Assembly: GCA_947364365.1 (NCBI GenBank)
Contig: CANASP010000002.1
Span: forward strand, 1 to 64,000
Length of the DNA stretch: 64,000 nt
Origin: an uncultured Alistipes sp.
GTDB lineage: Bacteria; Bacteroidota; Bacteroidia; Bacteroidales; Rikenellaceae
Direction of reading: 5' to 3'
Made by a program: the position numbers and the translations under genes. Positions 3,314-64,000 of this stretch are shown here, one piece after another. Every line of letters starts with the position of its first letter. Within the stretch, counting starts at the first letter, position 1. The notes below the pieces were generated by a model. It did no database searches and was not told where the DNA came from. It saw only the letters and a program-made list of their open reading frames with translations.

Positions 3314-4012
3314 ATGAAAAAACTCGTCGTCTTCACCGGCGCCGGCATCAGCGCCGACAGCGGCCTGGCCACCTTCCGCGACGCCGACGGCCTGTGGGCC
3401 GACCACCGCATCGAGGAGGTCTGCACCCCCGAGGCGCTCGCGCGCGACCGCGCCACGGTCATCCGCTTCTACAACATGCGGCGCCGCGAGGCCTTCGCCG
3501 CCGCGCCCAACGCCGCCCACCGCGCGATCGCCCGCCTCGAACGCCACTTCGACGTGGAGGTCGTCACGCAGAACGTCGACGACCTGCACGAGCGGGCCGG
3601 CTCGTCGCGCGTGCTCCATCTCCACGGCGAGCTGCGCAAGCTGCGCTCGACACGCGATGCGGAGCTCGTGGTCCCCGTCGAAGGGTGGGAGCAGCCGCTC
3701 GACGCCACGGCACCCGACGGAGCGCCGCTGCGCCCCCACATCGTCTTCTTCGGCGAGGCGGTGCCGCTGTTCGAGCGGGCCGCGGAGATCGCCGCCCGGG
3801 CCGACGCGATGGTCGTCGTCGGCACCTCGCTGGCCGTCTACCCCGCCGCGTCGCTCGTGCGCTACGTGCGCCCCGAGATCCCGCTCTATGTGGTCGACCC
3901 GGGCGCGCCCGACACCTCGGGCATCCGCAACCCGCTCACGCATCTGCGCCTGCGCGCCGCCGAGGGAATGCCCCGCCTGGCCGAGGAGCTCGTGGCACGG
4001 TTCGTGCGCTGA
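3314..4012 (+). CDS. Sir2-family NAD-dependent protein deacylase
   Basis: This 232-residue protein begins with the sirtuin NAD motif (VFTGAGISADSGLATFRD), has TQNVDDLHERAG and the catalytic-His motif LHLHGEL, and ends with FFGEAVP and GTSLAVYPAAS. These are hallmarks of CobB/SIRT5-like enzymes that remove acyl groups from lysines using NAD+. The segment that usually carries two CxxC zinc pairs (after LHGELRKL) contains no cysteine at all. The start ATG at 3314 was chosen because upstream codons are unrelated to the family. It is 58 bp after the previous gene. Confidence 0.92.
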   Translation: MKKLVVFTGAGISADSGLATFRDADGLWADHRIEEVCTPEALARDRATVIRFYNMRRREAFAAAPNAAHRAIARLERHFDVEVVTQNVDDLHERAGSSRVLHLHGELRKLRSTRDAELVVPVEGWEQPLDATAPDGAPLRPHIVFFGEAVPLFERAAEIAARADAMVVVGTSLAVYPAASLVRYVRPEIPLYVVDPGAPDTSGIRNPLTHLRLRAAEGMPRLAEELVARFVR

Positions 4013-4190
4013 ACACCGGCGAACGAGCGCCTCGCGCCCCTGCCCTCCCGCGGGCGGCAAGGGACTTCCCCCCGGAAGAGACCTTCCCGCGAAACGGCAC
4101 CTTCCGCGACACGCCCGCATCCATCCGACGACCTGCCCTTACGGCGGGTCGTTTTTCTTTCGGACCGGGGAGGGCGGCGGCCGCACGGGG

Positions 4191-4640
4191 CGCAGCCAGC
4201 GGGGGCGTGACGGAGGCGTCGGCCGACAGAGCAGCCCTCCGCTGGCTGCGACCCGAGAGAGAAATCACAACAATTACAGCCCCGATCTACAAGAGAAGAG
4301 CAACAGCCCTCCGCCCGGGGGCGGCTCCGGGCCGTGCGGCCCAGCGAGCCGCAATCTACCGGCTGGACTGCGGCCATGCGGCCCGATGAGCCGCAGCCGG
4401 CACAAAACAGGTTGCGCCTCCACCCGGGAACGGGGCCGGGCCGTGCGGCCCGATGAGCCGCAGCCGACACAAAACAGGTTGTGCCTCCACCCAGGAACGG
4501 GGCCGGGCCGTGCGGCCCGATGAGCCGCAGCCAGCCAGCAAGGGCGACGGCCCGCACGCTCCGGCGAGCCGGACACACGATCCGCGACCCTGGCGAGCCG
4601 GACACACGATCCGCGGCTCCAGCGAGCCGGACACACGGCA
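4191..4640. repeat. GC-rich repeat block: alpha fragment, 67-bp units and three 29-bp units
   Basis: The gap between the Sir2 gene and the 5-alpha-reductase-like gene is filled with repeats. 4191-4253 forms a hairpin-like inverted pair (cgcagccagcgg / ccgctggctgcg). 4295-4341 is a fragment of element alpha. The core gcggcccgatgagccgcagcc recurs every 67 bp (4374, 4441, 4508), related to the 68-bp units at 503-980. The word gcgagccggacacac recurs at 4564, 4593 and 4622 (exact 29-bp spacing). No supported gene lies within. Confidence 0.75.
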
Positions 4641-4700
4641 AAGGCCGAACGAACAGAACGCTTTCCGGGAAAGATCGACCGACAAAAAAGAGGCCGCGCG

Positions 4701-4732
4701 TTTTCGGATTCGCCGCGGAATCGCTATCTTTA
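4701..4732 (+). promoter_or_regulatory. Possible promoter of the steroid/bile-acid-type operon
   Basis: TATCTTTA at 4725-4732 differs by one base from the TAnnTTTG box, with a TTTTC stretch about 19 nt upstream. The first ATG lies at 4757. Confidence 0.4.
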
Positions 4733-4756
4733 CGGCATCAAACGCTTTACGGACCG

Positions 4757-5518
4757 ATGATCGAATCCTACGACACGCTGCTCGTCGCGATGGCCGTGCT
4801 GGCCCTCGTCGTCTTCGTGGCCCTGCGCTTCTTCGAGGCGGGCTACGGTTACCTGTTCGACCGCCGCTACGGTCCGCCCGTCCCCAACAAGATCGGGTGG
4901 ATCGTGATGGAGGCCCCGGTCTTCATCGCCATGTGCGTGCTGTGGGCCTCGTCGGAGCGCATGTGGCAGCCCGCGCCGCTGGTGCTCTTCGGCCTCTTCC
5001 AGGCCCACTACCTCCAACGCGCCTTCATCTTCCCGCTGCTGATGCGCGGGCGGTCGAAGATGCCGCTGGGGATCGTCGCGATGGGGGCCGCGTTCAACCT
5101 CGTCAACGCACTGATGCAGGGCGGCTGGATCTTCTACGTCGCCCCGGCCGACTACTACGACGGGTGGTTCGCCCGGCCCTGCTTCTGGATCGGCACGGCC
5201 CTCTTCCTCTTCGGCATGGCGGTCAACCTCCATTCGGACCATATCATCCGCCGCCTGCGCCGCCCGGGCGACACGCGCCACTACATCCCCCGCGGCGGGA
5301 TGTTCCGCTACGTCTCGTCGGCCAACTACTTCGGCGAGCTGACCGAGTGGACGGGCTTCGCCATCGCCTCGTGGTCGTGGGCCGGAGCGGTCTTCGCGCT
5401 GTGGACCTTCGCCAACCTCGCGCCGCGCGCCCGCTCGCTCTACCGCCGCTACGAGCAGGAGTTCGGCGACGAATTCACGCAGCTGCGCCGCCGGAAGATC
5501 ATCCCGTTCATCTATTAA
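4757..5518 (+). CDS. 3-oxo-5-alpha-steroid 4-dehydrogenase (steroid 5-alpha-reductase) family membrane enzyme
   Basis: 253 residues with several membrane segments. The C-terminal third is strikingly like animal SRD5A1: NLHSDHIIRRLRRPGD, IPRGGMFRYVSSANYFGE, LTEWTGFAIASWS and the final RRKIIPFIY. In this family these regions bind NADPH and the 3-oxo-delta4-steroid, whose C4-C5 double bond is reduced to a 5-alpha (flat, allo) A/B ring junction. It is followed after 12 bp by an Old-Yellow-Enzyme family reductase and then by a short-chain dehydrogenase, which suggests a bile-acid or steroid A-ring pathway. The substrate itself is inferred. The ATG at 4757 begins immediately before the first membrane helix. 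Confidence 0.9.
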   Translation: MIESYDTLLVAMAVLALVVFVALRFFEAGYGYLFDRRYGPPVPNKIGWIVMEAPVFIAMCVLWASSERMWQPAPLVLFGLFQAHYLQRAFIFPLLMRGRSKMPLGIVAMGAAFNLVNALMQGGWIFYVAPADYYDGWFARPCFWIGTALFLFGMAVNLHSDHIIRRLRRPGDTRHYIPRGGMFRYVSSANYFGELTEWTGFAIASWSWAGAVFALWTFANLAPRARSLYRRYEQEFGDEFTQLRRRKIIPFIY

Positions 5519-5530
5519 ACGCGCCTCACC

Positions 5531-6757
5531 TTGGAATCCAAACTCTTCACCCCCTATAAGCTGGGCCCCGTCACCCTGCGCAACCGGACGATCCGCTCGG
5601 CCGCCTTCGAGTCGATGGGCAAGGACTTCGGCCCCACGCAACAACTCAAGGACTACCACGTGGCCGTCGCGCGCGGCGGCGTGGGCATGACCACGCTGGC
5701 CTACGCCGCGGTCAACCGCAGCGGCCTGTCGTTCAACAAGCAGCTGTGGCTGCGCGACGAGATCGTCCCCGCGCTGCGCGACATCACCGACGCCATCCAC
5801 GCCGAGGGTGCCGCCGCCGGCATCCAGATCGGCCACTGCGGCAACATGACCCACTGGTCGACGGCCGGCTGCTTCCCGGTGGGGGCCTCGACGGGCTTCA
5901 ACCTCTACTCCCCCACCTTCGTGCGCGGCATGCGGCGCAGCGAGTGCGTGCAGTTCGCCCGCGACTTCGGCCGCGCCGTGACGACCGCTCACGAGGCGGG
6001 CTTCGACTCGGTGGAGGTCCACGCCGGCCACGGCTACCTCATCTCGCAGTTCCTCTCGCCCTACACCAACCGCCGGCGCGACGAATACGGCGGCTCGCTG
6101 CAAAACCGCATGCGCTTCATGACGATGTGTCTGGAGGAGGTGCTGGAGGCCGCGGCGAAGACCCGCACGGCCGTGGTGGTCAAGCACAACATGGAGGACG
6201 GATTCAAGGGCGGCATCCGGATAGACGAGAGCATCGAGATCGCCCGCGAGATCGAGCGCTGCGGGGTCGACGGCATCGTCTTGACGTCGGGCTTCGTGTC
6301 GAAGGCGCCGATGGCCGTCATGCGCGGCCGCATCCCCACCAAGACCATGAGCTACTACATGCCCTGGTCGTCGTGGCCGCAGAAGATCGTCGTCAACCTC
6401 TTCGGGCAGTGGATGATCAAGCAGTACGACTTCGAGGAGTGCTATTTCCTGGAGAACGCCCGCAAGTTCCGCGCGGCGCTCAAGGGACCGCTGATCTATG
6501 TCGGCGGACTGGTCTCGCGCGAGGGCATCGAGCGGGTGCTCGGCGAAGGGTTCGAGCTGGTGCAGATGGCCCGGGCGCTGGTCAACGACCCGGCCTTCGT
6601 CAACAAACTGCGCGCGGGCGACCTCACGACCCGCTCGGGATGCGACCACCGCGACTACTGCATGGCCCGCATGTATTCGGTCGACATGCAATGCTGCCAC
6701 AACTGCCGCGAGGAGATCCCCGAGCGGCTCTGGAAGGAACTCAGAAAGATCAAGTGA
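5531..6757 (+). CDS. Old Yellow Enzyme family NADH:flavin oxidoreductase (putative delta4-steroid/bile-acid 5-beta-reductase)
   Basis: 408 residues forming an FMN-binding TIM barrel of the OYE/BaiCD family: LFTPYKLGPVTLRNR at the N-terminus, IQIGHCGN, VEVHAGHGYLISQFLSP, NRRRDEYGGSLQNR and YVGGLVSREG. The C-terminal end is cysteine-rich (GCDHRDYC, then QCCHNC), reminiscent of the Fe-S site of BaiCD-type enzymes, but the large FAD/NAD domain of BaiCD is absent. The start is a TTG: the conserved N-terminus begins right there and the next ATG would delete it. Neighbouring 5-alpha-reductase-like and dehydrogenase genes suggest reduction of 3-oxo-delta4 bile acids; that specificity is inference. 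Confidence 0.85.
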   Translation: MESKLFTPYKLGPVTLRNRTIRSAAFESMGKDFGPTQQLKDYHVAVARGGVGMTTLAYAAVNRSGLSFNKQLWLRDEIVPALRDITDAIHAEGAAAGIQIGHCGNMTHWSTAGCFPVGASTGFNLYSPTFVRGMRRSECVQFARDFGRAVTTAHEAGFDSVEVHAGHGYLISQFLSPYTNRRRDEYGGSLQNRMRFMTMCLEEVLEAAAKTRTAVVVKHNMEDGFKGGIRIDESIEIAREIERCGVDGIVLTSGFVSKAPMAVMRGRIPTKTMSYYMPWSSWPQKIVVNLFGQWMIKQYDFEECYFLENARKFRAALKGPLIYVGGLVSREGIERVLGEGFELVQMARALVNDPAFVNKLRAGDLTTRSGCDHRDYCMARMYSVDMQCCHNCREEIPERLWKELRKIK

Positions 6758-57461: not shown

Positions 57462-58439
57462 ATGAACGCGCCGACCGCCGAGATCGAGGAGCGGCGCCGC
57501 CGCATGCTCCGCCGGCTCGAAGCCGGGGCCGCGACCATGGCCTGCGGCGAACGGCTGGCGGCACTCCCGCCGCTGCACCGCAGCGACCTCTGCACGGCGC
57601 TGGTCTTCGACCGGCTGGCCCGCAAGATGCGCCGCGTGGAGGAGCTCCATGCCGAGGCGGGCGAGAACTGGAACCAGACCTTCTACCGCCTCTACTTCCG
57701 CACGCTGGGCGACCGCCAGAACCAGGAGGCCTACCTCGCGCTCGCCCGCAGGGTCCCCTACCGCATCGTGCTGCGCGAGCGGCTGGTGCCCCGCGCCGTC
57801 GAGGCGATGCTCTTCGGCGCCTCGGGGCTGCTGGAACTCTACCCCGACGACAGCTACACGCTCGATCTCCGGCGTTCGTTCGTGCACCTGGCGGCCAAGT
57901 ACGGCATCGAGCCGATGGAGGCCGCGGCGTGGGAGCTCGCGGGCATCCGCCCGGCCAACCACCCCGTGCTGCGGCTGGCCGAAGCGGCCGAGTTCTTCGT
58001 ACAGGACGAGCTGGTGATGGACCGCACGATGGCCTGCCGCACGGAGGGCGACATACGGAGGCTCTTCTGCGCGGAGGCGTCGGGCTACTGGCGCACGCAC
58101 CACATCCCCGGCACGACGAGCGCCGACACCCCCAAACGGATCGGGGCGTTCAAGGCCAACATCATAGGGATCAATCTGGTAGCGGTGCTGCAATACGCCT
58201 ACGGCAGCTACACCGGCAGCGAACGGCTGCGCGACAGCGCCCTCACGCTGCTCGAACAGCTTCCGGCCGAGGAGAACCGCTACATGCGCGCGTGGCGGGA
58301 GGCGAGCGGACTCAGACCGCACAACGCCTTCGAATCGCAGGCCCTGCTGCAACTGGCCACCGAATACTGCACGGCGAAACGCTGCGCCCAGTGCCCGCTC
58401 GGGCGGAGGATCCTCGCGCGGGTGGAGCGGGCGGGATAG
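57462..58439 (+). CDS. DUF2851-family protein
   Basis: 325 residues, mostly alpha-helical, with GENWNQTFYRLYFRTLGDRQ, the block AANHPVLRLAEAA-like (PANHPVLRLAEAAEF) and a terminal cysteine cluster (CTAKRCAQCPLGRRIL), all typical of DUF2851, a Bacteroidota-enriched family of unknown function. It is last in the phosphatase-like/sufE/DUF59 run. The AT-rich island begins about 200 bp after its stop. Confidence 0.85.
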   Translation: MNAPTAEIEERRRRMLRRLEAGAATMACGERLAALPPLHRSDLCTALVFDRLARKMRRVEELHAEAGENWNQTFYRLYFRTLGDRQNQEAYLALARRVPYRIVLRERLVPRAVEAMLFGASGLLELYPDDSYTLDLRRSFVHLAAKYGIEPMEAAAWELAGIRPANHPVLRLAEAAEFFVQDELVMDRTMACRTEGDIRRLFCAEASGYWRTHHIPGTTSADTPKRIGAFKANIIGINLVAVLQYAYGSYTGSERLRDSALTLLEQLPAEENRYMRAWREASGLRPHNAFESQALLQLATEYCTAKRCAQCPLGRRILARVERAG

Positions 58440-58671
58440 GCCGTCCTATACGATTTCGCACAGAATCGGCATCGGGAAGCGGTTCCTGCTTCCGCCTGTC
58501 GGCGCCCTACGACCTTTGGCAGTATATGCAAATCGGCCCTTTTGAAAAGGAGCTTTCGGAGCGACCTGAAAGATCTCGGGATTTGGCAAGCAACTACCTC
58601 CGCAGCGGACTATCGACAGATAAGGACGTTACAACACTTACACAAAAGTCCAAAATACAACCTGCGGGGCT

Positions 58672-59247
58672 TCATTTCCACAAAAAGAAAAAAAGCAAAG
58701 ATAGCATCCACACGACAACACTAGGCAAGAATCTCAACATAGACAAATTTTTCAACATCCTAGTTAATATAACGAAATAAATTACAACCATACAAAAACT
58801 TCCTACTAAATCACAACATAAATATTTATGCATTAGATTATTATAGTAGTATTCATACAATAGCGGATTTGTCTGATGCAAAGAGATAAAGTTTAGATCA
58901 CAATTTAACAAAATTACAACCTTCACAACATCAAAGCATAAATTAACAATAAATATCCAGCTAGTTGCATATAAAAAAGAATGGGATGTATATACAAAAT
59001 CAAAATCATCGCCAGCAACAAGCACAAGTACAAAAAAAGACATTGAGCTTATGATAATAATAAGCCCTGTAACAATCGCAATATTTACGATATAACTTGA
59101 ATATGAAAAAACGCGATATGAAAACACTTCATCGGCTGCACAATAAGTTATTTCTTGCAATTCTCTAATTAAATATTCATATTTAAAAATACCAATAACG
59201 ATATTTACAAAAACAAATATCAGTATTGTGCCTATCAACCTTTTCAT
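58672..59247 (-). CDS. Polytopic membrane protein of the AT-rich island
   Basis: 191 residues with about five membrane helices (IGTILIFVFVNIVIGIF; IAIVTGLIIIISSMSFFVLV; SHSFLYATSWIFIVNLCF; DLVGSFCMVVIYFVIL; SVVVWMLSLLFFFLW). No family recognised. It is last in a four-gene operon and overlaps the preceding SpoIIM-like gene by 4 bp (ATGA). DNA is strongly AT-rich: 33% G+C in one 60-base line counted here (58981-59040) against 68% in a secA line. Possible roles are immunity or transport for the peptide encoded upstream; this is inference. Confidence 0.75.
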   Translation of the reverse strand: MKRLIGTILIFVFVNIVIGIFKYEYLIRELQEITYCAADEVFSYRVFSYSSYIVNIAIVTGLIIIISSMSFFVLVLVAGDDFDFVYTSHSFLYATSWIFIVNLCFDVVKVVILLNCDLNFISLHQTNPLLYEYYYNNLMHKYLCCDLVGSFCMVVIYFVILTRMLKNLSMLRFLPSVVVWMLSLLFFFLWK

Positions 59248-59756
59248 AAATACAATATCGAATAAGTTTCAACACAAGCAGCTATAAACAAAAAAATACA
59301 CCCAAGAATAAACATTCTAGTCAACAAAATTCGATCAAATAAATACTCTTTATCGGCAAAAAAATTTAATATATTTATTGTAATATTGAGCCCAATTGTC
59401 CCAAAAAGGAAAAACGCAGTTAGTTCAAATATGCCATGACCCCACAGATGACCTAAAATTTCCCCAAGCCGATATATTGGAACATTTAACAACCGACCAA
59501 CTAAAAAACCATTCCACCAAAGAATCGCAAAAATAGATATTCCTCCTGTCAGGAATCCACACATCAATGATATTGCGACTAATGAATTCGACCAAAATAT
59601 TCTACCAAAAATAATACTCCAATGTGGAACCTCGGGTTTTTCAATCCACATTGGAGTATATTCTTTAGTAAAAAATAATGCTGTAGCGACCCCTAATAAG
59701 AAAAGTAAGCAATTAGAACAAAATAACACAAGATTAAATTTACCATTCGTCTTCAT
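59244..59756 (-). CDS. SpoIIM/DUF95-like integral membrane protein
   Basis: 170 residues with about four helices. The layout fits SpoIIM/DUF95: a first helix with GVATALFF, IFWSNSLVAISLMCGFLTGG, ILWWNGFLVG, and WGHGIFELTAFFLFGTIGL (the H-G-x-x-E-L motif). The family includes DUF95 proteins encoded in circular-bacteriocin gene clusters as well as many uncharacterised ones. The ATG abuts the stop of the upstream peptide gene; the stop overlaps the next gene. Family assignment is by motif recognition. Confidence 0.8.
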   Translation of the reverse strand: MKTNGKFNLVLFCSNCLLFLLGVATALFFTKEYTPMWIEKPEVPHWSIIFGRIFWSNSLVAISLMCGFLTGGISIFAILWWNGFLVGRLLNVPIYRLGEILGHLWGHGIFELTAFFLFGTIGLNITINILNFFADKEYLFDRILLTRMFILGCIFLFIAACVETYSILYL

Positions 59757-60050
59757 TCAAAAAGCACCAATAAACGCTCCAACACTTCTCCCAAGACAAT
59801 AGCCGAAAGCACCTCCCATTGGACTAAAAATACAACCGATGGCCATCCCGCATGTTCCTCCAATATAATAGCCAGCATTCACTCCAGCCATAAGTAGTGC
59901 ATCTGTTGCTACATAGGCATCAGGCGGCAAATATTCATTCGCAATATATCCCGCAATTTTCATATCAGGCTGAGAAAGATTCACTATAACTGCAAACATC
60001 ATCGAACAAAATAACAGCCCGCACAAAGCCATGTTTTTCTGTTTTTTCAT
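59757..60050 (-). CDS. 97-residue glycine-zipper peptide (candidate bacteriocin-like precursor)
   Basis: A hydrophobic N-terminal segment (about 8-24: ALCGLLFCSMMFAVIVN) follows a basic start (MKKQKN). The last 45 residues are rich in Gly at small-residue spacing (GVNAGYYIGGTCGMAIGC, MGGAFGYCLGRSVGAFIGAF), with two cysteines. Such GxxxG helices are typical of membrane-inserting peptides, including several bacteriocins and effector pore segments. It starts 7 bp after the upstream gene's stop and abuts the SpoIIM-like gene. No sequence family is recognised; bacteriocin activity is inferred from features and company. Confidence 0.7.
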   Translation of the reverse strand: MKKQKNMALCGLLFCSMMFAVIVNLSQPDMKIAGYIANEYLPPDAYVATDALLMAGVNAGYYIGGTCGMAIGCIFSPMGGAFGYCLGRSVGAFIGAF

Positions 60051-60057
60051 AATCCAC

Positions 60058-60507
60058 TTATTTTTTATGAATATTTCCTATTGCATACAGATAAAGAACA
60101 TACACGACCATAAATAAAAATGCACAACCTAAATATCGCCAAAAGAGATCGTTTTTATAATACATCGCACATATAACAATCAATATCGGGGCAAATAATA
60201 TCTTTACCCGATAAAGATAGCCTTTCCAAGATTTTGAGGATGCAATATCCGCTTCCGCCCCTTTCAATTTATAGCGATTCTTTCTATTATGATATAAATT
60301 ACTGCAAAGAGCCAGAAACCCCACTAATACGGACAACGATCCGCAAACATAGCCCACACAATGCATTATTTTATCCCACAATGTTTTTGGGGGCGACATA
60401 TAAGCGAAAGCTAAAACAACCCCACAGCCGACAACGATCATAAAGACAAAACCTAGTTCTTCCTTATATCTATAATATAAATTGCAAAAAGAATCAAATT
60501 TTACCAT
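60058..60507 (-). CDS. Membrane protein, first gene of the AT-rich island operon
   Basis: 149 residues from the ATG at 60507 (an upstream TTG at 60531 is possible). Four membrane helices: FVFMIVVGCGVVLAFAYM, IMHCVGYVCGSLSVLVGFLA, ILFAPILIVICAM and LGCAFLFMVVYVLYLYAI, with a basic cytosolic loop (YHNRKNRYKLKG). No family recognised. It opens the operon followed by the glycine-zipper peptide, the SpoIIM-like protein and another membrane protein. DNA is AT-rich like the rest of the island. Confidence 0.72.
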   Translation of the reverse strand: MVKFDSFCNLYYRYKEELGFVFMIVVGCGVVLAFAYMSPPKTLWDKIMHCVGYVCGSLSVLVGFLALCSNLYHNRKNRYKLKGAEADIASSKSWKGYLYRVKILFAPILIVICAMYYKNDLFWRYLGCAFLFMVVYVLYLYAIGNIHKK

Positions 60508-60647
60508 ACAAGTTAAATTAAGACAATGCAATATAATAAATATATACTATTTCGCCAAATTTAGCACGTATTTTTCTCAATCGAGCATCCAAAAAGCGCA
60601 CCCGCTGCGCGCATTCGTCCGCAAACGCTCGCTTTCCGTCCGCGGGC

Positions 60648-60729: not shown

Positions 60730-63700
60730 ATGGATATTCTTGCATCAATCATCAAGACCCTCTTCGGCTCGAAGGCCGACAAGGACCGCAAGGAGATAGA
60801 GCCCTATCTCCGGAAAATCAAGGAGGTATACCCCTCGATCGAAGCGCTGTCGAACGACGAACTGCGCGCCCGCAGCGAGGCGCTCAAGAAGCGCATCGCC
60901 GACTTCATCGCCTCCGACGAGCAGCGCATCGTCGAGCTGAAGGCCACGCTCGAGAAGGCCGAGACGACGCTCGCGGAGAAGGAGAAGACCTCGAAGGAGA
61001 TCGACGAGACCACCAAGCGCATCGACGAGAAGATCGAGCAGGTGCTCGACGAGATCCTGCCCGAGGCCTTCGCCATCATGAAGGACACGGCGCGCCGCTT
61101 CGCCCAGCAGGAGGAGGTGGTCGTCACGGCCAACGACTTCGACCGCGACCTGGCCGCCACGAAGGATTTCGTGCGCATCGAGGGCGACAAGGCCATATAC
61201 GCCACCCACTGGACGGCGGGCGGCAACGACCTGAAATGGGACATGGTGCACTACGACGTGCAGCTCTTCGGCGGCGTGGTGCTCCACAAGGGCAAGATCG
61301 CCGAGATGGCCACGGGCGAGGGAAAGACGCTCGTGGCGACGCTCCCCGTATTCCTCAACGCCCTGGCCCGCAAGGGCGTGCACCTGGTGACGGTCAACAA
61401 TTACCTGGCCAAGCGCGACTCGGAGTGGATGGGCCCGATGTACGAGTTCCACGGACTGTCGGTGGCCTGCATCGACGACACGCAGCCCAACTCCGACGCC
61501 CGCCGCAAGGCCTACATGGCCGACATCACCTTCGGCACGAACAACGAGTACGGCTTCGACTACCTGCGCGACAACATGGCCTCGTCGCCCAAGGACCTCG
61601 TGCAGCGCAAGCACCACTTCGCCATCGTCGACGAGGTCGACTCGGTGCTCATCGACGACGCCCGCACGCCGCTCATCATCTCGGGCCCCGTGCCCAAGGG
61701 CGACGACCAGCTCTTCGAGCAGTACCGCCCGGCGATCGAGCACCTCTACAACCTCCAGAAAAACTTCGTCACGGGACTGCTCGCCGAGGCCCGCGGCCTG
61801 ATCGGCGAGGGCAAGAACGACGAGGGCGGCGTGAAGCTCTACCGCGTGCACAAGGGTCTGCCCAAGTACAAGCCGCTGATCAAATACCTCTCGGAGACGG
61901 GTGTCAAGGCCCTGATGCAGAAGACCGAGAACACCTACATGCAGGACAACAACCGCCGCATGCCCGAGATCACCGACGCGCTCTACTTCGTCATCGACGA
62001 GAAGCTCAACTCGGTGGAGCTGACGGACAAGGGCCACGAGGCGCTGTCGAAGTTCTTCAACGAGGACGGCTTCTTCGTGCTGCCCGACATCGGCGCCGAG
62101 GTGGCCGAGATCGAGAAGAGCGACCTCACGGCCGAGGAGAAGGCGCAGCGGCGCGACGCTGTGATCAACGACTACTCGGTCAAGTCGGAGCGCGTCCACA
62201 CCGTCCACCAGCTGCTGAAGGCCTACGCCATGTTCGAGAAGGACATCGAGTATGTGGTGATGGACAACAAGGTGAAGATCGTCGACGAGCAGACGGGCCG
62301 TATCCTCGAAGGGCGCCGCTACTCCGACGGCCTGCACCAGGCCATCGAGGCCAAGGAGCACGTCAAGGTCGAGGCCGCGACGCAGACCTTCGCGACGATC
62401 ACCTTGCAGAACTACTTCCGCATGTACCACAAGCTGGCCGGTATGACCGGTACGGCCGAGACGGAGGCTTCGGAGTTCTGGTCGATCTACAAACTGGACG
62501 TCGTGGTGATCCCGACCAACCGGCCCGTGCTGCGCGACGACCGTCAGGACCTGATCTACAAGACCAAGCGCGAGAAGTACAACGCCGTGATCGAGGAGGT
62601 CGTCAAGCTCGTCGGAGAGGGCCGGCCCGTGCTCGTGGGCACCACGTCGGTGGAGATCTCGGAGCTGCTGAGCCGCATGCTGAAGCTGCGCGGCATCAAG
62701 CATAACGTACTGAACGCCAAGCAGCACGCGCTGGAGGCACAGGTCGTGGCCGAGGCCGGCCGCTCGGGCCAGGTGACCATCGCCACCAACATGGCGGGCC
62801 GCGGTACCGACATCAAGCTCACGCCCGAGGTCAAGGCCGCGGGCGGTCTGGCGATCATCGGCACCGAGCGCCACGAGAGCCGCCGCGTCGACCGCCAGCT
62901 GCGCGGCCGTGCCGGCCGTCAGGGCGACCCCGGATCGTCGCAGTTCTTCGTCTCGCTGGAGGACGACCTGATGCGTCTGTTCGGCTCGGGCCGCATCGCC
63001 ACGATGATGGACCGCATGGGTCTGAAGGAGGGCGAGGTGATCCAGGCCGGGATGATGACCAAGGCGATCGAGCGCGCGCAAAAGAAGGTCGAGGAGAACA
63101 ACTTCGGCATCCGCAAGCGTCTGCTGGAGTACGACGACGTGATGAACTCGCAGCGCGAGGTGATCTACACGCGCCGCCGCCACGCATTGTACGGCGAGCG
63201 GGTGGAGATCGACCTGAACAACATCATGTACGACTACGCCGAGAACTTCGTCGAGGAGCACCGCGGCATCGAGCTGGAGGATTTCCGCTTCGAGCTGATC
63301 CGCGAGGTGGCCGTCGAGCCGTCGATCGACGCGGCGACCTACGCCTCGGCCAAGCCCGAGGAGCTCGTCGAGGCGATCGTCGCTGACCTGAAGGCCGCCT
63401 ACGCCCGCCGCGCCAAGGCCGTGGCCGACACGGTGCGTCCCGTCATGGAGCGCATCTACGAGGAGCGCCGCGAGCAGCTCGATTCGAACATCTACTTCCC
63501 GCTGACCGACGGCCACCTGGGCTACAACGTGCCGGTGAACCTGCGCCGCTGCCAGGAGACCGACGGAGGGGAGATATATAAGGTATTCTCGAAGGTGGTG
63601 ATGTTCACCTCGATCGACGACGCATGGCGCGAGCACCTGCGCGAGATGGACGACCTGCGCCAGAGCGTGCAGAACGCCTCCTACGAGCAGAAGGACCCGC

Positions 63701-64000
63701 TGCTGATCTACAAGTTCGAGTCGTTCGGGCTCTTCTCGAAGATGCTCGTGAAGGTCAACCGCGAGGTGCTCTCGATCCTGGGCCGCGCTTACGTGCCCGT
63801 GAGGGAGCAGCGCCCCGACGAGGCCGAGCGCCAGCGCCAGATGCAGCTGCAACAGCAGCGCGAGCGCGCCAAGGTCGACGTCAACAAGTTGCAGGCCTCG
63901 CGCATGCAGGCCGCCGCGCAGGCCGGGCAGGGCGAGCGGCAGAAGCCCATGCCGATCCAGGCCGAGAAGAAGGTCGGACGCAACGACCCCTGCCCGTGCG
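60730..64000 (+). CDS. secA: Preprotein translocase ATPase SecA (partial, runs off the window)
   Basis: 1,090 complete codons are present. The DEAD motor domain has [20 protein letters not shown] (Walker A), [12 protein letters not shown] and [20 protein letters not shown] (Walker B); the second motor half has [12 protein letters not shown] and [20 protein letters not shown]. An insertion-rich N-terminal region (about 40-110) is longer than in E. coli, as usual for Bacteroidota. The sequence ends inside the zinc-binding tail (VGRNDPCPC), so only about ten to fifteen residues are missing. SecA drives protein export through SecYEG. Confidence 0.98.

What the first reader, a model, noticed from the sequence alone, without database searches (positions are those of the whole stretch)
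58640..60540. AT-rich four-gene membrane operon with a SpoIIM/DUF95-like protein: candidate undescribed bacteriocin-type system
Seen: an abrupt drop in G+C (20 of 60 bases in line 58981 versus 41 of 60 in secA line 61261), four tightly packed or overlapping minus-strand genes, all encoding small membrane proteins, one a glycine-zipper peptide. Known: circular-bacteriocin clusters carry a DUF95/SpoIIM-family membrane protein next to a hydrophobic precursor and small membrane immunity proteins. Inference: this may be a horizontally acquired peptide-toxin/immunity cassette of a type not described in Bacteroidota. It could equally be a membrane-remodelling or defence cassette.
Basis: partly seen in the sequence, partly recalled or inferred. 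Interest (0 to 1): 0.78.

Follow-up and report, generated by a model that had tools for sequence, protein, structure and literature searches.

The report
Acquired gut-bacterium operon resembling bacteriocin clusters
A gut bacterium carries a small, foreign-looking cluster of four genes whose layout resembles clusters thought to make small antibacterial peptides in other bacteria, which points to a little-known branch of such systems in the Bacteroidota; its activity is untested.

Summary
Four tightly coupled minus-strand genes (58672-60507), 33% G+C, interrupt a 65% G+C region (z -9.6). Gene C is a SpoIIM/DUF95 protein (Pfam E 2.6e-16); no other of 180 genus genomes, many incomplete, gave a SpoIIM hit. 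In 19 of 29 relatives' loci the flanking genes lie within 556 bp of each other, so the cassette was gained. Other Bacteroidota repeat parts of the plan: glycine-rich peptide, often an M48 protease, short SpoIIM, 5-TM protein. In Flavobacterium taihuense the peptide is related to gene B (0 of 1000 shuffles as good). The same search recovered SpoIIM of a Clostridium-type cluster (L046) laid out like circular-bacteriocin clusters: 67-aa precursor, SpoIIM, membrane protein, ABC ATPase. In all five scanned relatives with a peptide gene, the strongest hairpin follows that gene directly; here it starts 80 nt beyond, inside gene C. I conclude: a bacteriocin-type peptide production/immunity operon, a Bacteroidota variant of the SpoIIM-dependent kind. 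It is not shown to be a circular bacteriocin: no ABC ATPase gene lies in the window, the precursor is unlike L046's, and there are no activity data.

The parts
60058..60507 (-). Gene A, 149 aa, 4 hydrophobic segments, cationic (18 K+R, 7 D+E); candidate immunity protein (inferred)
   Evidence: ORF and hydropathy; no significant family in Pfam, NCBIfam, PADLOC or PHROGs; no relative in viral contigs or plasmids
59757..60050 (-). Gene B, 97-aa candidate precursor: hydrophobic signal-like N-terminus plus glycine-zipper C-terminal half
   Evidence: 8 GxxxG vs 1.8 expected, 0/2000 shuffles; BLASTP E 3e-5 to the F. taihuense peptide for the single pair; alignment z 7.2, 0/1000 shuffles
59244..59756 (-). 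Gene C, 170-aa SpoIIM/DUF95 membrane protein
   Evidence: Pfam PF01944 E 2.6e-16, 60.4 bits over cut-off 26.9; ten-sequence alignment A10 with invariant N57, N82, H107, E111
58672..59247 (-). Gene D, 191-aa protein with 5 hydrophobic segments; same place, size and segment spacing as the last gene of the Flavobacterium cassettes
   Evidence: segment positions and alignment z 4.0 to the L043 protein; Yip1 relation not supported (hhalign prob 3%)
59597..59676 (-). Long, nearly perfect RNA hairpin, nt 81-160 of gene C, just after the peptide gene
   Evidence: inverted repeat; RNA fold -34 kcal/mol, z -8.2, 0/200 shuffles
60556..60563 (-). TAAATTTG, like the Bacteroidota -7 promoter element (consensus recalled), about 50 nt upstream of gene A; weak evidence
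   Evidence: pattern match; 6 such matches in the region against 2.8 expected
57462..58439 (+). Left flank: DUF2851 gene, within 556 bp of secA in 19 of 29 relatives' loci
   Evidence: Pfam PF11013 E 4e-61
60730..64000 (+).

Best explanation
The four genes are a horizontally acquired operon that makes, matures or exports, and protects against, a small secreted glycine-zipper peptide, working like the SpoIIM-dependent (circular-type) bacteriocins. Proposed course: B is made with a signal-like leader; its leader is removed and the Gly-zipper core, which could pack helices in a membrane, is released by a membrane complex built on SpoIIM (C) and the 5-TM protein (D); an M48 protease, encoded in the operon in several relatives, is absent here and would have to come from elsewhere in the chromosome; A is the likely immunity protein; a long RNA hairpin just after the peptide gene keeps peptide expression higher than that of the genes behind it. 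Shown by sequence: gene content, foreign origin, SpoIIM identity, relation of the peptide to that of F. taihuense, recurring gene order, hairpin position. Inferred: secretion, antibacterial action, the roles of A, C, D and the hairpin.
For: C is SpoIIM; no SpoIIM hit in the other 179 genus genomes; near-empty site in 19 of 29 loci. Same plan in Flavobacterium L043 (peptide-M48-SpoIIM-5TM) and L055 (regulator-peptide-M48-SpoIIM-5TM), in rumen Bacteroidia L048 (M48-SpoIIM-5TM); M48 confirmed by Pfam in these three, E 2.6e-20, 6e-18, 8e-14; with MacA/MacB, outer-membrane efflux and ABC ATPase genes in L036. Peptide B related to the L043 peptide. The search with three cassette SpoIIMs recovered near-identical SpoIIMs of Lachnobacterium bovis L045 and Clostridium MAG L046 (185 of 187 positions counting the stop); L046 has 67-aa precursor-SpoIIM-membrane protein-ABC ATPase, the layout given for circular bacteriocins (PMC6131525, PMC8659200, passages). 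M48 and Yip1 genes also occur in some head-to-tail clusters. Strongest operon hairpin directly after the peptide gene in 5 of 5 relatives scanned that have one; the AS-48 mRNA is likewise processed into a TA and a TBC part (PMC3942455, passages).
Against: No ABC ATPase gene in the 64-kb window (16 PF00005 matches in the genome, none at C2:1-64000); no protease or regulator beside the cassette. B resembles the L055 peptide only weakly (z 3.2, 10 in 1000) and the L036 and L046 peptides not at all (z -0.2, 0.5). D is only weakly related to the relatives' 5-TM proteins (z 4.0, 0.6, 1.5). The L046 precursor is circular-type by layout and by my eye only, and in L045 no intact precursor frame stands before this SpoIIM, so the published L. 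bovis circularin-like peptide cannot be tied to this locus. Glycine zippers also occur in envelope proteins that are no toxins. Two of the six genome-contig hits (L044, L047) show no such cassette. No expression or activity data.
Confidence: 0.58

Rival explanations
1. An incomplete or orphan cassette: the remains of a peptide cluster kept for immunity (A, C and D protect the membrane against a peptide of neighbours), no longer producing it.
For: Transport, M48 and regulator genes of the relatives are missing; a DUF95 protein is suggested to act in immunity as well as production (PMC3942455, passage); partial SpoIIM copies stand beside peptide genes in G514 (L062), and in L045 the precursor frame is gone while SpoIIM stays.
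Against: All four frames are intact and tightly coupled; the peptide gene itself is retained.
Confidence: 0.2
2. A membrane-remodelling or small-protein secretion complex unrelated to antagonism, as proposed for archaeal SpoIIM + Yip1 + small membrane protein cassettes.
For: PMC5898192 (section 3.3 read) describes three- or four-gene cassettes of SpoIIM-family, Yip1-family and fast-evolving small membrane proteins.
Against: Relatives carry a signal-like small peptide with M48 or MacAB-type genes; sporadic occurrence and low G+C fit antagonism cargo better than a housekeeping complex.
Confidence: 0.13
3. A secreted signalling-peptide system (regulator-peptide-protease-exporter) rather than a toxin.
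For: A response regulator (Pfam E 5e-8 and 4e-10) sits directly upstream of the peptide in L055, and two genes upstream in L043.
Against: No regulator in the window cassette; a Gly-zipper hydrophobic peptide with a separate cationic membrane protein fits a membrane-active peptide with immunity better.
Confidence: 0.07
4. A phage- or defence-related membrane cassette.
For: Foreign composition and sporadic presence.
Against: PADLOC: no hit for any of 4 proteins; PHROGs: only hits at E 0.1-0.2; no relatives of C in phages or of A, B, C in viral contigs.
Confidence: 0.02

Closest known systems
Circular (head-to-tail cyclised) bacteriocins: circularin A, enterocin AS-48, leucocyclicin Q type
   Same: SpoIIM/DUF95 gene, small hydrophobic peptide gene directly upstream, further hydrophobic membrane proteins, strong RNA hairpin after the peptide gene (seen here in the circular-type cluster L046)
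   Different: Gly-zipper peptide with a signal-like leader, unlike the L046 precursor; no ABC ATPase gene in the window; host is a diderm Bacteroidota. Surveys seen in passages place circular precursors in Firmicutes, Actinobacteria and Thermotogae (PMC8534725) or in Firmicutes and Chloroflexi, none in 14 Bacteroidetes strains (PMC4289311)
Flavobacterium peptide-M48-SpoIIM-5TM cassettes found here (L043, L055; L040 without a peptide gene seen)
   Same: Gly-rich peptide, SpoIIM, 5-TM protein, order SpoIIM then 5-TM, low G+C
   Different: They carry an M48 protease and a response regulator; the window has gene A upstream and no protease
Archaeal SpoIIM (arCOG01996) + Yip1 + small membrane protein cassettes
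   Same: SpoIIM-family protein with small membrane proteins in a short cassette
   Different: Yip1 relation of D not shown; no precursor-like peptide is named in the section read
Bacteroidetocins
   Same: Peptide toxins of Bacteroidetes (start of abstract of PMC6671954 seen)
   Different: Related to class IIa bacteriocins according to that abstract; not compared by sequence here

Membership tests
Circular bacteriocin cluster | SpoIIM/DUF95 gene in the cluster | tested here: met
   PF01944 E 2.6e-16
Circular bacteriocin cluster | Small hydrophobic precursor gene adjacent | tested here: met
   Gene B immediately upstream of C, 0-bp gap
Circular bacteriocin cluster | Precursor similar to circular precursors | tested here: not met
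   z 0.5 to the one circular-type precursor at hand, that of L046; no Pfam or NCBIfam family, but the L046 precursor hits none either, so the profile test says little; named circular bacteriocins were not compared
Circular bacteriocin cluster | ABC transporter ATPase in the cluster | tested here: not met
   16 PF00005 matches in the genome, none in C2:1-64000; the nearest on that contig is at C2:132624. ATPases do occur in L036 (Pfam) and L045/L046 (by eye)
Circular bacteriocin cluster | Small cationic hydrophobic immunity protein | tested here: inconclusive
   Gene A is cationic and hydrophobic, 149 aa, and matches nothing
Circular bacteriocin cluster | Head-to-tail cyclised product with antibacterial activity | not testable with these tools
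   Needs mass spectrometry and bioassay
SpoIIM (PF01944) protein family | Score above Pfam's cut-off over nearly the whole model | tested here: met
   60.4 bits vs 26.9, model positions 2-160 of 163
Long (about 320-aa) SpoIIM of Bacteroidota | Long frame, common in relatives | tested here: not met
   170 aa here; no hit at E <= 0.001 in the other 179 genus genomes, while most order and phylum hits lie in frames of about 315 aa or more
Yip1 family (gene D) | PF04893 match | tested here: not met
   No Pfam match for D; hhalign prob 3% against a Yip1-like profile
Known anti-phage defence systems | Match to a PADLOC model | tested here: not met
   No hit at E <= 1 for any of 4 proteins
Bacteroidetocins / class IIa-like peptides | Sequence similarity of the peptide | not tested
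   No bacteroidetocin sequence was fetched; NCBIfam gave no hit for B

The most novel reading that the evidence does not exclude
A class of signal-leader glycine-zipper peptide bacteriocins spread through the Bacteroidota, matured by a SpoIIM + 5-TM complex with an M48 protease as the missing leader peptidase or cyclase, sharing the post-precursor RNA hairpin with circular bacteriocins and thus one SpoIIM-dependent plan across monoderms and diderms.
Probability: 0.33. Interest if true: 0.82.

Novelty: new variant of a known kind. Interest (0 to 1): 0.6.

Why it matters
How circular bacteriocins lose their leader and are joined is unsolved; papers seen here say that no enzyme has been identified (PMC8659200) and that DUF95 is only presumed to act in circularisation (PMC6131525). 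Bacteroidota cassettes in which a SpoIIM protein, an M48 protease and a peptide stand together as a minimal operon would make that question directly testable in genetically tractable hosts, and would add a peptide-antagonism system to a major gut phylum. The RNA hairpin offers a further, simple test of shared regulation.

Tried and rejected
Close relatives of C by single sequence: none in viral contigs, plasmids, phages or genome contigs; only its own genome among 180 genus and 393 order genomes. L036's SpoIIM: none in plasmids or viral contigs. B and A in viral contigs: none. B, A and D in plasmids: none but one 37-residue Gly-rich hit of B at E 0.6 in a dynamin-family gene. Two weak genus hits for B (E about 0.009) were not followed.

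Short or weak SpoIIM hits that proved unrelated: 3 of the 7 inspected (L037, DedA-like by eye; L038, FtsX-like permeases by eye; L039, no SpoIIM gene seen). Not inspected among the partial, weak or odd-length rows: G508 of the order search and G749, G683, G694, G593 and G675 of the phylum search. L044 and L047 showed no cassette (the ORFs of the G+C-rich L044 were not resolved).

In L045 no intact precursor frame precedes this SpoIIM, so that tie is withdrawn; only the near-identical L046 shows a precursor there. I lowered confidence from 0.62 to 0.58 and the novel case from 0.35 to 0.33 for this, and raised the orphan rival.

Gene D as a Yip1 protein: no support. Flanking target-site repeats: none convincing. 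Rfam: no match at gathering score. PDB sequences: no match to the SpoIIM profile at E <= 1. tRNAs: two in the window, none near. Sigma-70-like promoters and terminators: 11 against 9.4 and 3 against 2.0 expected. M48 in trans: the own genome has an M48 gene at C5:122228 and two weaker hits; a link with the cassette is untested.
Full report
WHAT IS THERE. The window lies in a 2.15-Mb genome of 38 contigs, 87% complete. Between a DUF2851 gene (57462-58439; Pfam E 4e-61) and secA (from 60730) sit four minus-strand genes: A (60058-60507, 149 aa), B (59757-60050, 97 aa), C (59244-59756, 170 aa) and D (58672-59247, 191 aa). They are separated by 7 bp, 0 bp and a 4-bp overlap. G+C is 0.329 against 0.652, sd 0.033, in 580 other windows of that size (z -9.6), and GC3 is 0.26-0.33 against 0.92-0.95 in the two neighbours.

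FAMILIES. C matches Pfam SpoIIM (PF01944) at E 2.6e-16, 60.4 bits against a cut-off of 26.9, over positions 2-160 of 163. A, B and D match nothing significant in Pfam, NCBIfam, PADLOC or PHROGs. B has one hydrophobic N-terminal stretch (residues 7-25) and a glycine-rich tail with 8 GxxxG motifs against 1.8 expected, reached by 0 of 2000 shuffles. A has 4 and D 5 hydrophobic segments; A is cationic, 18 K+R to 7 D+E.

ORIGIN. Protein C finds only its own genome among 180 genomes of the genus and 393 of the order. The SpoIIM profile finds 1 of 180 genus genomes, this one, at E <= 0.001 (only 70 of the 180 are at least 90% complete and at most 5% contaminated), while 62 of 393 order genomes and 107 of 326 phylum genomes have a hit, mostly in frames of about 315 aa or more. 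To look for the empty site I searched 51 genus genomes for SecA (49 matched) and examined the 29 best loci besides its own. In 19 of 29 the DUF2851 gene lies 69-556 bp from secA; of the other 10, one had 1287 bp between and nine did not show DUF2851 in the DNA held; A-D were found in none of the 29. Longer flanks for 8 of those 10 show DUF2851 further off with other genes between in 5 of 8, and no linkage within about 7 kb in 3 of 8 (one at a contig end), again without A-D. So the spot is variable and the cassette was gained.

RELATIVES. I inspected 7 short or weak SpoIIM hits from the order and phylum searches: 4 of 7 are cassettes, L036, L040, L041 and L042; 3 of 7 are not; six further partial, weak or odd rows were not inspected. 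A scan of genome contigs with an alignment of three of these SpoIIMs (C, L040, L041) gave 6 loci: Flavobacterium taihuense L043, a rumen Bacteroidia MAG L048, Lachnobacterium bovis L045, a Clostridium MAG L046, and two without a visible cassette, L044 and L047. A search of 199 genomes of the genus of G773 found 6 with a match: G773 (already seen as L040), G923 (carries the L043 sequence), the new cassette L055, and three in frames of 321-366 aa. A search of 60 genomes of another family found 3: G514 (with L036, plus two partial copies), G1109 (L061: SpoIIM and a 5-TM protein, no peptide seen) and a 359-aa frame not examined.

GENE ORDER. L043: response regulator - DUF6625 protein - peptide (93 aa) - M48 - SpoIIM - 5-TM. 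L055: response regulator - peptide - M48 - SpoIIM - 5-TM, the last three at 0.20-0.24 G+C. L040: regulator-like frame - M48 - SpoIIM - 5-TM, no peptide seen. L048: M48 (cut by the contig end) - SpoIIM - 5-TM. L041: M48 - SpoIIM - membrane protein. L036: MacB - MacA - two genes - peptide - 78-aa TM protein - SpoIIM - Yip1-like (E 1.5e-4, below cut-off), and further on an outer-membrane efflux gene interrupted by an IS66 transposase, and an ABC ATPase. L042: peptide - Yip1-like (E 0.0037, below cut-off) - SpoIIM. M48 is confirmed by Pfam in L040 and L041 (E 5e-21, 2e-19) and in L043, L055 and L048 (E 2.6e-20, 6e-18, 8e-14), response regulators in L043 and L055. The window has A - peptide - SpoIIM - 5-TM and neither an M48 nor a regulator gene next to it.

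HOW GOOD ARE THE LINKS. C against L040's SpoIIM: BLASTP E 2e-8 for the single pair. In a ten-sequence SpoIIM alignment four positions are invariant (N57, N82, H107, E111). B against the L043 peptide: E 3e-5 for the single pair, z 7.2, 0 of 1000 shuffles; against L055 z 3.2 (10 of 1000); against L042 z 2.6 (21 of 1000); against L036 z -0.2; against the L046 precursor z 0.5. The GxxxG excess is strong in B, weak in L043 and L055 (P 0.04 and 0.02) and absent in L036, L042 and L046. D against the L043 5-TM protein z 4.0, against L048 0.6, against L055 1.5; its five segments start at 4, 58, 98, 143 and 171, against 7, 55, 91, 139 and 167 in L043. A Yip1 relation of D is not supported. So C is certain, B likely, D plausible and A unassigned.

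LINK TO CIRCULAR BACTERIOCINS. L046 has a 67-aa hydrophobic peptide directly before SpoIIM, then a 540-aa membrane protein and an ABC ATPase (the last two named by eye), which is the layout described for circular bacteriocins (PMC6131525 and PMC8659200, passages). It matches no Pfam or NCBIfam bacteriocin model, and I did not compare it with a named bacteriocin. L045, Lachnobacterium bovis DSM 14045, has a nearly identical SpoIIM (185 of 187 positions, stop included) but no intact precursor frame before it. PMC13289728 (passages) reports that strain DSM14045 encodes a peptide 75.7% identical to circularin A and calls SpoIIM class-defining; whether that peptide belongs to this locus I cannot say. 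PMC8659200 reports Yip1 proteins in several head-to-tail groups and an M48 peptidase in two members of group 1. PMC7132975 (passages) says SpoIIM was found in almost every cluster and that circularised leucocyclicin Q accumulated in cells when it was removed.

ABC TRANSPORT. The own genome has 16 ABC_tran (PF00005) matches at E <= 1e-5, none in the window; the nearest on the same contig is at C2:132624. Export would thus need another route or a partner in trans.

THE HAIRPIN. Folding 84-nt windows in steps of 12, the strongest hairpin lies directly after the peptide gene in L043, L055 and L036 (ranked by shuffle z) and in L042 and L046 (ranked by energy): 5 of 5 relatives scanned that have a peptide gene. 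In L040 it lies before the M48 gene, where no peptide is seen. L048, with no peptide gene in the DNA held, has no strong hairpin (best z -2.4). The top hairpins of L041 (z -3.2 and -4.3) and L061 (z -2.2) are not next to a recognised peptide gene. z-scores with dinucleotide shuffles are -6.0 (L043), -4.0 (L055), -4.7 (L036), -5.2 (L040) and -8.2 (window); these stretches were picked after the scan, so the scores are selected. In the window the hairpin begins 80 nt after the peptide stop, inside gene C (59597-59676). In AS-48 the first transcript is processed into TA and TBC parts with different half-lives (PMC3942455, passages). I infer the same purpose here.

MECHANISM. Best reading: B is the precursor; C and D form the membrane maturation/export complex; A is immunity; the protease is supplied in trans (M48 genes exist elsewhere in the genome) or is not needed. 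Only gene content, relations and hairpin position are shown; the rest is inference.

NOVELTY. Surveys seen in passages place circular precursors in Firmicutes, Actinobacteria and Thermotogae (PMC8534725), or in Chloroflexi and Firmicutes with none in 14 Bacteroidetes strains (PMC4289311). In a RiPP survey of Bacteroidales a term search found no SpoIIM, sporulation, circular, M48 or Alistipes, and 'head-to-tail' only in a reference (PMC10352776). My ten searches of the open library listed no paper that I recognised as describing this in Bacteroidota; three of them listed only part of their finds (28 of 31, 20 of 1,226, 12 of 464), one search listed 6 of 7 and one search listed 9 of 10, and most subscription journals and preprints are not covered. 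I file it as a new variant of a known kind and not as a circular bacteriocin, because two features (ATPase in the cluster, precursor of known type) were tested and not met.

Noticed in passing
L062 (G514:C1:957000-969000), about 3707-6529: Three repeated units of a peptide gene plus a 78-82-aa two-TM protein, with two truncated SpoIIM frames between them and a DDE transposase gene beside; the pairing suggests that the 78-aa protein may be the peptide's immunity partner in that lineage.
   Followed up: partly
L036:7568-7804 and 5521-5775: The 78-aa two-TM protein beside the peptide has a similar protein further down the cluster; that one has a weak Pfam match to Saf_2TM (E 0.003, below cut-off).
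   Followed up: no
L036:1845-5509: An IS66-family transposon interrupts the outer-membrane efflux gene of the G514 cluster.
   Followed up: partly
L045:5520-5863: In Lachnobacterium bovis DSM 14045 the stretch before this SpoIIM lacks the intact precursor frame that the near-identical Clostridium MAG locus L046 has.
   Followed up: partly
Genus loci L094, L096, L098, L099, L100: The interval between DUF2851 and secA holds different cargo in several relatives (by eye an O-acyltransferase-like and a glycoside-hydrolase-like protein among others), so it may be an insertion hotspot.
   Followed up: partly
L043:3180-4475: A DUF6625 protein (Pfam E 2.5e-65) lies between the response regulator and the peptide gene in F. 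taihuense; L055 has no such gene between its regulator and peptide.
   Followed up: no
window 60596-60613: A G+C-rich stretch with a small terminator-like hairpin lies between the cassette and secA; whether it is part of the insertion is unclear.
   Followed up: no
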